From assembly GCA_018715125.1 (NCBI GenBank), contig DVMF01000079.1:1-38398 (forward strand): a stretch of 38,398 nt of DNA, in the 5' to 3' direction. Positions 793 through 37,996 of this stretch are shown piece after piece (the first letter of the stretch is position 1; every line of letters starts with the position of its first letter). The position numbers and the translations under genes are program-made. Source of the DNA: Candidatus Coprousia avicola. Its GTDB lineage: Bacteria; Actinomycetota; Coriobacteriia; Coriobacteriales; Coriobacteriaceae. A model generated the notes under the pieces. That model saw only the letters and a list, made by a program, of their open reading frames with translations. It was not told the DNA's origin and did not search any database.

Positions 793-820
793 TTGCAAAT
801 AGACGCGCGCGGGGTATATT
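793..820 (+). promoter_or_regulatory. Candidate promoter of the ferredoxin gene
   Basis: TTGCAA at 793-798 and TATATT at 815-820 are separated by 16 bases, a good sigma-70 type pair. The predicted transcript start is about 55 bases before the ferredoxin ATG. Confidence 0.6.
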
Positions 821-881
821 GAACCCATCAGACCCGGCTCATTCGCCTGGGACGCCGGGCGCTATTAGAGGAGGAACTACT

Positions 882-1067
882 ATGGCCCATCCCGTTATTT
901 CTGCCGACGATTGCATCGCTTGCGGCGTCTGCGTTGACGACTGCCCGCAGGGCGTCCTCGAGATGCAGGACGTTGCCACCGTGGTTGATGAGGATTCCTG
1001 CATCGCCTGTGGCATCTGCCAGGAGAGCTGCCCGGCCGGCGCCATCACCGAGATCACCGAGGACTAG
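882..1067 (+). CDS. Small 2[4Fe-4S] ferredoxin
   Basis: This 61-residue protein has two CxxCxxCxxxC motifs (Cys 11, 14, 17, 21 and Cys 40, 43, 46, 50), the arrangement of clostridial-type ferredoxins that carry two [4Fe-4S] clusters. It is a low-potential cytoplasmic electron carrier, typically serving pyruvate:ferredoxin oxidoreductase or hydrogenase in anaerobes. The ATG at 882 is preceded by AGAGGAGGAACTACT, a strong ribosome site; an in-frame upstream ATG at 819 overlaps the promoter and is unlikely to be used. The gene has its own promoter and a strong terminator, so it appears to be monocistronic. Confidence 0.95.
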   Translation: MAHPVISADDCIACGVCVDDCPQGVLEMQDVATVVDEDSCIACGICQESCPAGAITEITED

Positions 1068-1129: not shown

Positions 1130-1157
1130 GGGGCTCCCCGCGGGGAGCCCCTTTTTT
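1130..1157 (+). terminator. Rho-independent terminator after ferredoxin
   Basis: A perfect palindrome (GGGGCTCCCCG followed directly by CGGGGAGCCCC, 1130-1151) is followed by six T residues at 1152-1157. Confidence 0.93.
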
Positions 1158-1169
1158 GTGCCGGGCTCA

Positions 1170-1435
1170 TTGCGTACATTACCGCGTACATTTGCGCGTA
1201 CATTGCAGGGCCTTTTGCCGGGGCCCCGGTGCAATATCGGGCGCAATGTACGGCAAAACGCGCTCCGGCGGCCGAGGCGGGGCCGCGAGTACATTGCGAG
1301 GGGAAATGTACGGACCGCTACCTTCGGTTTCGCGCACCGTACACTCGCGCGCACATTGCCGGGTTCTTTGCCGCGGGAAATGTACGGCCACCCGGGCGAA
1401 ACGCGCGGCAATGTGCGCGCGAATGTACGGTCGGG
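1170..1435 (-). repeat. Dispersed GTACATT-rich inverted-repeat element, copy 1
   Basis: This non-coding stretch, read on the minus strand, aligns almost end to end with 36970-37234 read on the plus strand; about three quarters of positions match by eye with only short gaps. Shared blocks include GCGGCAAAGAACCCGGCAAT, CCCTCGCAATGT and CCCCGGCAAAAGG. The element holds many GTACATT motifs and their complements, arranged as imperfect inverted repeats that could form two long hairpins. It lies between the ferredoxin terminator and the 3' end of the converging gene at 1482-2060. The nature of the element is unknown. An open frame crosses it, but that frame has no ribosome site and overlaps a better gene. 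Confidence 0.85.
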
Positions 1436-36684: not shown

Positions 36685-36762
<78 letters not shown>

Positions 36763-36969: not shown

Positions 36970-37234
36970 CCAACCGTACATTACCGCGTACATTGCCGCG
37001 TGTTTTGCCCGGGCCCCGGGACATTTCTCGCGGCAAAGAACCCGGCAATGTACGCGCGAATGTACGGTGCGCAAAATGGCAGGTAGAGGGGTGTACATTT
37101 TCCCTCGCAATGTGCCCGTCCGCGGATTTGGGCTCCCAGAACGCGTTTTCTCATACATTGCGCGCGATATTGTACCGACGCCCCGGCAAAAGGGCTCGCA
37201 ATGTACGCCGTGCGGCTAGCGGTAATGTACGTAA
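36970..37234 (+). repeat. Dispersed GTACATT-rich inverted-repeat element, copy 2
   Basis: Second copy of the element at 1170-1435, in the opposite orientation. Within it, about 36974-37010 and 37030-37067 are long imperfect inverted repeats (CCGTACATT...GCGTACATTGCCG against CGGCAATGTACGCGCGAATGTACGG), and a second pair spans roughly 37092-37185 (GTACATTTTCCCTCGCAATG against CATTGCGCGCGATATTGTAC). It lies between the tRNA-Asp promoter and the 3' end of the phosphodiesterase gene, again outside any gene I can support. 36814-36969 before it contains nothing recognisable. Confidence 0.85.
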
Positions 37235-37399: not shown

Positions 37400-37867
37400 C
37401 TATGCCCAGGCGCTCTCGAGCTTGATGATCTTGACGAACTGAACGGCGCCCTCGCCCACGTACATACGCGCCATAGTGGGCGTCGCCGAATCGCGCGGGC
37501 TGGTGGCAGAACCCGGGTTGATAACGAGGCACCGCCCCTGCTCGGCGATGCGCGCCCGATGCGTATGGCCGCACACGCCCACGTCGATCGCGCCCACGGG
37601 CAGATCCTCGCGATAATGCGAGACGGCAAACGTCAGGCCCTCGTACTCAAACGTGTTGAGGCGCTTGAGCGCGGGCTCGTACTCGTAATAGTACGTATCG
37701 TTGTTGCCCAGAACGGCTTTGATGGGGGCGATGGTCTGAAGCATCTCCCAATCCGCCTCGGACGTGATGTCGCCCGCATGAATGATAAGGTCGGCGCCTT
37801 CGAGCGACGCCAAAAGGGAGCGCGAGAGCCTCCCGTGCGTGTCGGAGATGATATCGATGCGCTTCAT
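37400..37867 (-). CDS. YfcE/MJ0936-type metallophosphoesterase
   Basis: A 155-residue phosphodiesterase with the calcineurin-like metal motifs in order: SDTHG (9-13), HAGDI, LGNND, SHY and CGHTH. Length matches the YfcE family, which cleaves artificial phosphodiesters with Mn2+; natural substrates are uncertain. I start at 37867 (MKRIDIISDTHG) because this is where the family begins; the frame is open back to 37990, but that extension contains an extended -10 promoter. A weak AAAGGA lies ten bases before the chosen ATG. It follows the LytTR gene in the same direction. Confidence 0.9.
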   Translation of the reverse strand: MKRIDIISDTHGRLSRSLLASLEGADLIIHAGDITSEADWEMLQTIAPIKAVLGNNDTYYYEYEPALKRLNTFEYEGLTFAVSHYREDLPVGAIDVGVCGHTHRARIAEQGRCLVINPGSATSPRDSATPTMARMYVGEGAVQFVKIIKLESAWA

Positions 37868-37903
37868 ATCGCGTACATCCTTTACTCGGCTATCCGAGCT
37901 GGG

Positions 37904-37912
37904 AGTGTAGCA
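37904..37912 (-). promoter_or_regulatory. Extended -10 promoter of the phosphodiesterase gene
   Basis: TGC-TACACT on the minus strand (37912-37904). A small hairpin (CTCGG-ATAG-CCGAG) lies between it and the start codon. Confidence 0.5.
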
Positions 37913-37996
37913 TATCTCCTGGATGGCGACAGATTCCCCATGAGTGTCCCCGATGCCCAGCCAGCGGCGTATCGCGGCACCGAGCCCCATGGCGGC

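What the first reader, a model, noticed from the sequence alone, without database searches (positions are those of the whole stretch)
1170..1435. Dispersed structured repeat in two inverted copies (1170-1435 and 36970-37234)
The two non-coding stretches align nearly end to end when one is reversed. Both are built of GTACATT/AATGTAC motifs arranged as nested imperfect inverted repeats, and both lie in a gene-free spot next to gene ends. The arms within each copy are complementary, and where the copies differ pairing often seems to be kept, which hints at selection on folding of RNA or single-stranded DNA. It resembles neither a known insertion sequence nor a REP element that I can name. It may be a MITE-like or REP-like family, an RNA gene or a chromosome-organisation site.
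Basis: seen in the sequence. Interest (0 to 1): 0.75.

Follow-up and report, generated by a model that had tools for sequence, protein, structure and literature searches.

The report
Palindromic 12-bp-unit repeat family in Collinsella
The two matching non-coding stretches belong to a previously unlisted family of about 250-base hairpin-forming repeats scattered between the genes of a small group of gut bacteria (Collinsella), most likely old, mostly immobile mobile-DNA debris kept alike by copying and recombination rather than a new kind of machine.

Summary
The two stretches are inverted copies (78% identical) of one element, and the window's genome has 13 full copies, one half copy and one divergent copy. 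A profile of the conserved core finds 8-18 copies in six of nine species of this Collinsella genus and essentially none in the other three or in 58 further family genomes. The element is an array of 12-bp units (GCGTACATTGCC here; GGGTTCATTGCC and GGGTTCACTACC in relatives) in both orientations around a conserved CTACCTGCG core, in intergenic places. Most copies sit at the same loci in Collinsella sp. An268, yet the unit sequence has turned over between lineages and copies convert one another. In the related species the main hairpin shows significant compensatory change (P<0.001). In the window's own lineage it does not. One copy is inverted in place between two species. No target duplication and no autonomous parent were found, and the genomes' REP-associated transposase is flanked by a different repeat. 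Best reading: a new lineage-restricted family of small interspersed palindromic repeats (REPIN/BOX-like), once mobile, now homogenised by ectopic conversion and hairpin template switching. RNA or protein-binding roles are not excluded. Real, moderately interesting, new member of a known kind.

The parts
1174..1430 (+). copy 1 of the repeat element
   Evidence: 13 full genomic copies at 78-86% identity, oriented alignment
1174..1206 (+). left end: three tandem 12-bp units (GCGTACATTnnC); the An268 ortholog has one unit fewer
1245..1251 (-). reverse unit (AATGTAC) of the central stem
1289..1311 (+). central dyad GTACATT-9-AATGTAC
1318..1327 (+). conserved core CTACCTTCGG (consensus CTACCTGCGGTT, shared by all six species)
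   Evidence: alignment A4, profile search
1337..1430 (+). right-hand hairpin: arms 1337-1361 and 1406-1430
   Evidence: RNA fold; pair counts
36974..37230 (-). copy 2 of the repeat element, inverted relative to copy 1
37075..37086 (-). conserved core of copy 2 (CTACCTGCCATT)
36974..37067 (-). right-hand hairpin of copy 2: arms 37043-37067 and 36974-36998
   Evidence: RNA fold; alignment
819..1067 (+). flanking gene: 4Fe-4S ferredoxin, its 3' end towards copy 1
   Evidence: Pfam Fer4
1130..1157 (+). terminator-like hairpin with T run between the ferredoxin gene and copy 1; kept in the An268 ortholog
   Evidence: sequence, ortholog alignment
37400..37990 (-). flanking gene: calcineurin-like phosphoesterase, its 3' end towards copy 2
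   Evidence: Pfam Metallophos_2
36685..36762 (-). flanking tRNA-Asp gene
   Evidence: ARAGORN and Rfam

Best explanation
The stretches are two copies of a lineage-restricted small interspersed repeat. Each copy is a palindromic array of 12-bp units around a fixed core. Copies were dispersed into intergenic spots in the ancestor of six Collinsella-group species by a copy mechanism acting in trans (shown: about 230-bp blocks recur at unrelated loci; inferred: a transposase did it). Most loci are now fixed and inherited vertically. Since then the arms and units have been kept alike by two recombination processes: ectopic gene conversion between copies (supported by tree/locus conflict) and intra-hairpin template switching (inferred from arm homogenisation and an in-place inversion). 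No host function is needed to explain the data.
For: Thirteen full copies; 8-18 core matches per genome in six species, none in the three others of the genus. Ten loci shared with An268 with 94-98% flank identity, element bodies diverging patchily. Tree: G002_L046 and L051 group at 100/99 although they lie at different loci; G000_L043 groups with G002_L041 and G000_L010 with G000_L034, against locus orthology. A 228-bp block is 96% identical at unrelated loci of two species (G003:C10:5668 and G002:C12:196235) while the flanks do not match. At another orthologous locus a 237-bp segment is 96% identical in opposite orientation between G003 and G007, with flanks collinear at 92-94%. Lag-12 autocorrelation 0.41 against 0.20-0.30 at other lags. 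Template switching between inverted repeats is reported to homogenise arms and invert spacers (PMC8604942, abstract) and to maintain hairpins (PMC8794818, abstract).
Against: No target-site duplication and no clean empty site. No transposase gene was found between copies or among the flanking ORFs looked at. Conservation of the core and of the R-45-F-30-core spacing through unit turnover could mean a selected role. Conversion and transposition cannot be told apart from these data.
Confidence: 0.6

Rival explanations
1. The element is a REPIN-like unit mobilised by the single-copy REP-associated tyrosine transposase (RAYT) of these genomes.
For: RAYT-like genes occur in exactly the six genomes that carry the element; the only hit in the other three is a different IS200-like gene (NCBIfam REP_Tyr_transpos below its cut-off). 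The R-F hairpin is an inverted doublet with compensating changes in relatives, as described for REPINs (PMC3116915).
Against: The RAYT gene is flanked by a different repeat, TTTGGGGACGGGnnC, with no GTACATT unit beside it. That repeat has the same six-genome distribution and 9-42 hits per genome, so it is the better partner. The three genomes without either look like a separate clade (rpsL leader), so the match may be a single event.
Confidence: 0.15
2. It is a transcribed, selected RNA structure (3'-end protector or terminator-like element) placed after genes.
For: Strong folding (z -4.2 to -6.1). The type-2 stem keeps pairing through changes (observed 397 Watson-Crick cells against 372 expected, P<0.001); A-C mismatches are depleted more than G-U (0.37 against 0.79 of expectation). 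Many copies lie 30-170 bp downstream of a gene 3' end.
Against: No covariation in the window's lineage. Copies occur in both orientations and beside different gene types; a terminator hairpin already precedes several copies. Template switching gives the same covariation. No Rfam match.
Confidence: 0.12
3. The 12-bp units are binding sites of a sequence-specific DNA-binding protein (nucleoid or domain organiser, or a regulator), and unit turnover reflects co-evolution with that protein.
For: Units at exact 12-bp pitch in both orientations; unit letters conserved within a lineage without arm covariation; the unit word differs between lineages in many positions of the array at once.
Against: No candidate protein found; restricted to six species of one genus and absent from their close relatives; copies missing or replaced at some loci.
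Confidence: 0.1
4. Chance similarity or an assembly artefact.
For: Draft assembly of 93 contigs.
Against: Orthologous copies in an independent isolate genome (An268) with matching flanks; E-values to 1e-79 between copies.
Confidence: 0.01

Closest known systems
REPINs / REPs with RAYT (Pseudomonas, E. coli)
   Same: Intergenic; inverted doublets forming a hairpin; compensating changes (in the sister species); a RAYT-like gene in the same genomes
   Different: Units lack the GTAG tag in the window's lineage; the RAYT is flanked by another repeat; 8-18 copies rather than hundreds; extra tandem 12-bp units and a core
BOX elements of Streptococcus pneumoniae (boxA-boxB-boxC)
   Same: Composite, modular, hairpin-forming, intergenic, restricted to a few related species, apparently slow current movement
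   Different: Sequence not compared; BOX has reported target duplications (PMC3049150); here the variable module is a 12-bp unit and no duplication was found
MITEs (e.g. Correia elements, RUP)
   Same: About 250 bp, non-coding, terminal inverted repeats of two tandem units
   Different: No target duplication found, no parent transposon found, not AT-rich (58-64% GC in a 65% GC window)
Terminal-repeat families of RAYT-like genes (TIRYT/TIRtrons, PMC3733652)
   Same: The same genomes carry such a RAYT-like gene
   Different: That gene's repeats are TTTGGGGACGGG, not this family

Membership tests
REP (GTAG/CGTC-tagged palindromes) | 20-40 bp palindrome tagged at one end by GTAG or CGTC | tested here: not met
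   Window-lineage units (GCGTACATTGCC / GGCAATGTACGC) have no such tag; sister-species units contain GTAG only inside the stem
REPIN | Inverted doublet with spacer forming a hairpin, compensating changes | tested here: inconclusive
   R-F doublet present in nearly all copies; covariation significant in type 2, absent in the window's lineage
REPIN | Cognate RAYT gene flanked by the same repeat | tested here: not met
   RAYT flanks carry TTTGGGGACGGG repeats
MITE | Terminal inverted repeats | tested here: met
   CCGTACATTnnCGCGTACATTGC ... GCAATGTACGCGCGAATGTACGG
MITE | Target-site duplication | tested here: not met
   Flank k-mer sharing equals shuffled flanks for k=4-8 in 13 copies; no clean empty site
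MITE | Autonomous parent with the same ends | tested here: not met
   End pattern with up to 2 mismatches occurs only in the known copies of this genome. For sister species the unit pattern was mapped but the genes between copies were read at one paired locus only, an ABC transporter operon
BOX element | Composite of fixed end modules and a variable number of middle modules | tested here: inconclusive
   Unit number varies by one 12-bp step between orthologs; no sequence comparison with BOX was run
Known RNA family (Rfam 15) | Match at or above gathering score | tested here: not met
   Only tRNA-Asp in the window
Phage or plasmid repeat | Similar DNA in phage, plasmid or viral records | tested here: not met
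   No match

The most novel reading that the evidence does not exclude
The 12-bp arrays are the recognition sites of an unidentified fast-evolving DNA-binding or hairpin-processing enzyme of this genus. The array, spacing and core persist at fixed loci for long times while the recognised word is rewritten in concert over much of the genome, and the enzyme inverts or converts the arrays: a REPIN-like system without a RAYT partner.
Probability: 0.12. Interest if true: 0.7.

Novelty: new member of a known kind. Interest (0 to 1): 0.42.

Why it matters
It gives a compact case of concerted evolution of a small bacterial repeat: the same loci in several species, unit words differing as GGGTTCACTACC, GGGTTCATTGCC and GCGTACATTGCC, arms staying complementary, and one element inverted in place. 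That allows a direct test of whether hairpin covariation comes from selection or from replication template switching. It also warns that covariation alone does not prove an RNA function.

Tried and rejected
Rfam families: none. Phages, plasmids, viral contigs: none. RAYT as the partner: same species distribution, but wrong flanking repeats. The 6-kb segment between two elements in G003/G007 as a mobile cargo: it is an ordinary ABC sugar-transporter operon, present without those elements in G001. Target duplications: no excess over shuffled flanks. Compensatory change between the two window-type ends: no excess. G-U against A-C asymmetry as proof of RNA: not decisive, because the shuffled expectation is already skewed. 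Coding potential of the units: not tested formally; 12-bp periodicity fits four codons, but the variable unit position does not behave like a third codon position (by eye). Literature on Collinsella or Coriobacteriia repeats: searches returned nothing relevant, in an open-access library only.

Full report
WHAT IS THERE. The window is contig C57 of a 2.42-Mb draft genome in the same genus as Collinsella sp. An268 (G002 here; the contig lengths agree; taxonomy). The two reported stretches align end to end in inverted orientation. All 15 GTACATT words of the window lie in them, against 0.83 expected. Each copy is about 257 bp: tandem 12-bp forward units, a reverse unit, a central dyad, a core (CTACCTGCGGTT), and a right-hand hairpin made of forward and reverse units. 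Forward units are spaced 12 bp apart in 48 cases and reverse units in 28; lag-12 autocorrelation is 0.41 against 0.20-0.30 at other lags. Copy 1 has exactly one 12-bp unit more than its An268 ortholog.

HOW MANY AND WHERE. BLAST finds 13 full copies, a half copy at C83 and a divergent copy at C52 in the window's genome. Exact patterns of the window type occur in three of 397 genomes of the order. BLAST with a G001 copy revealed homologues in G003, G006 and G007 built from other units. A sequence profile of the core region (A4; model) then gave G000 15, G001 13, G002 18, G003 12, G006 8 and G007 10 matches, none in G004, G005 and G008, and one marginal match (E=9e-4) in 58 further family genomes. 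The copies examined are intergenic, often 30-170 bp after a gene or tRNA 3' end. Gene calls there are heuristic (GC3), so the distances are approximate.

ONE ARCHITECTURE, CHANGING WORDS. Aligning 67 copies around the core shows the same geometry in the lineages: reverse unit, 45 bp, forward unit, 30 bp, core, then further forward units (spacings read from the alignment). The words differ: GGGTTCACTACC (G003/6/7), GGGTTCATTGCC (G001), GCGTACATTGCC (G000/G002), with intermediates such as GGGTTCATTACC. At the rpsL locus an element lies at the same place and orientation in G000, G001, G002 and G003, each in its own type. The tree separates type 2 from the rest (100/99) and groups several copies against their locus orthology: G002_L046 with L051, G000_L043 with G002_L041, G000_L010 with L034. 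That is the mark of ectopic conversion or re-insertion. G002 also keeps a few type-2-like copies, so the homogenisation is incomplete.

POSITIONS AND REARRANGEMENT. Flank comparison pairs ten loci of G000 with G002 and one of G001 with G002, with at least one flank at 94-98% identity; the divergent C52 copy is at the last of these loci too. The copy-1 locus has no element in G001, G003 or G006. The G002-only locus at C1:388801 has unrelated sequence in G000. No clean empty site was found and no target duplication. At one orthologous locus the flanks of G003 and G007 are collinear (94% and 92%) while the 237-bp element is 96% identical on the opposite strand: an inversion in place. A 228-bp block from G003:C10 is 96% identical to one at a different locus of G002 and the flanks do not match, so the element copies as a unit.

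FOLDING AND COVARIATION. Both window copies fold better than all 200 shuffles (z -5.0, -4.2), and so does a type-2 copy (z -6.1). To ask whether pairing is kept where copies differ, whole arms were permuted among copies, which keeps the words but breaks the partnership. In the window's lineage there is no excess for the terminal repeats (P=0.83), the central stem (P=0.4-0.65) or the dyad, and a weak one for the right-hand hairpin (P=0.02-0.04). In type 2 the 26-bp R-F stem has 397 Watson-Crick cells against 372 +/- 5 expected (P<0.001, robust to removing near-duplicates and the most divergent copies). The permutation does not remove all relatedness. Selection on a hairpin would explain this; so would replication template switching, which homogenises inverted-repeat arms and inverts the spacer (PMC8604942 and PMC8794818, abstracts only). 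The observed inversion fits the second.

PARTNER. No transposase was seen between or beside the copies examined. A RAYT-like gene (Pfam Y1_Tnp; NCBIfam REP_Tyr_transpos below its cut-off) is present in exactly the six carriers, but its flanks carry TTTGGGGACGGG repeats, a separate family with the same six-genome distribution. The shared distribution may be one evolutionary event, since the three non-carriers look like a separate clade (inference from the rpsL leader).

VERDICT. A real, new, lineage-restricted family of small interspersed palindromic repeats. It works like REPINs or BOX elements (dispersed, hairpin-forming, non-coding) but fails the GTAG and RAYT-flank tests for REP/REPIN and the target-duplication and parent tests for MITE. 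Shown: family, architecture, word turnover, conversion or re-insertion, inversion, type-2 covariation. Inferred: past trans-mobilisation and template switching. Not shown: any function.

Noticed in passing
L105:1462-2202 (G000:C31), L106:1465-2235 (G001), L109 (G003): RAYT-like transposase gene flanked by inverted TTTGGGGACGGGnnC repeats; this repeat has 9-42 exact hits in each of the same six genomes and none in the other three. It looks like a TIRYT/RAYT-repeat system in Coriobacteriia.
   Followed up: partly
L221:6540-6800 and L223:6474-6720: A 237-bp element inverted in place between two species at an orthologous locus.
   Followed up: yes
L010:466-1440; L271; L272: The most widely conserved element locus (G000, G001, G002, G003, upstream of rpsL) lies directly downstream of a DUF559 gene (weak MTES_1575 endonuclease-like match in G000); the G004, G005 and G008 stretches read there show no element and different upstream sequence. 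A possible partner nuclease, untested.
   Followed up: no
L221:560-6800: In G003 and G007 two elements flank an ABC sugar-transporter operon that is missing at this locus in G000, where a single element remains; possibly deletion by recombination between elements.
   Followed up: partly
L033 and L057: The G001 and G002 copies at the locus shared with L015 (tatC side) have flanks of 86% identity on one side and 98.5% on the other, suggesting a homologous-exchange breakpoint at the element.
   Followed up: no
L240 (G002:C20:221900-222500): Copy that mixes type-1 and type-2 units, a possible intermediate.
   Followed up: no
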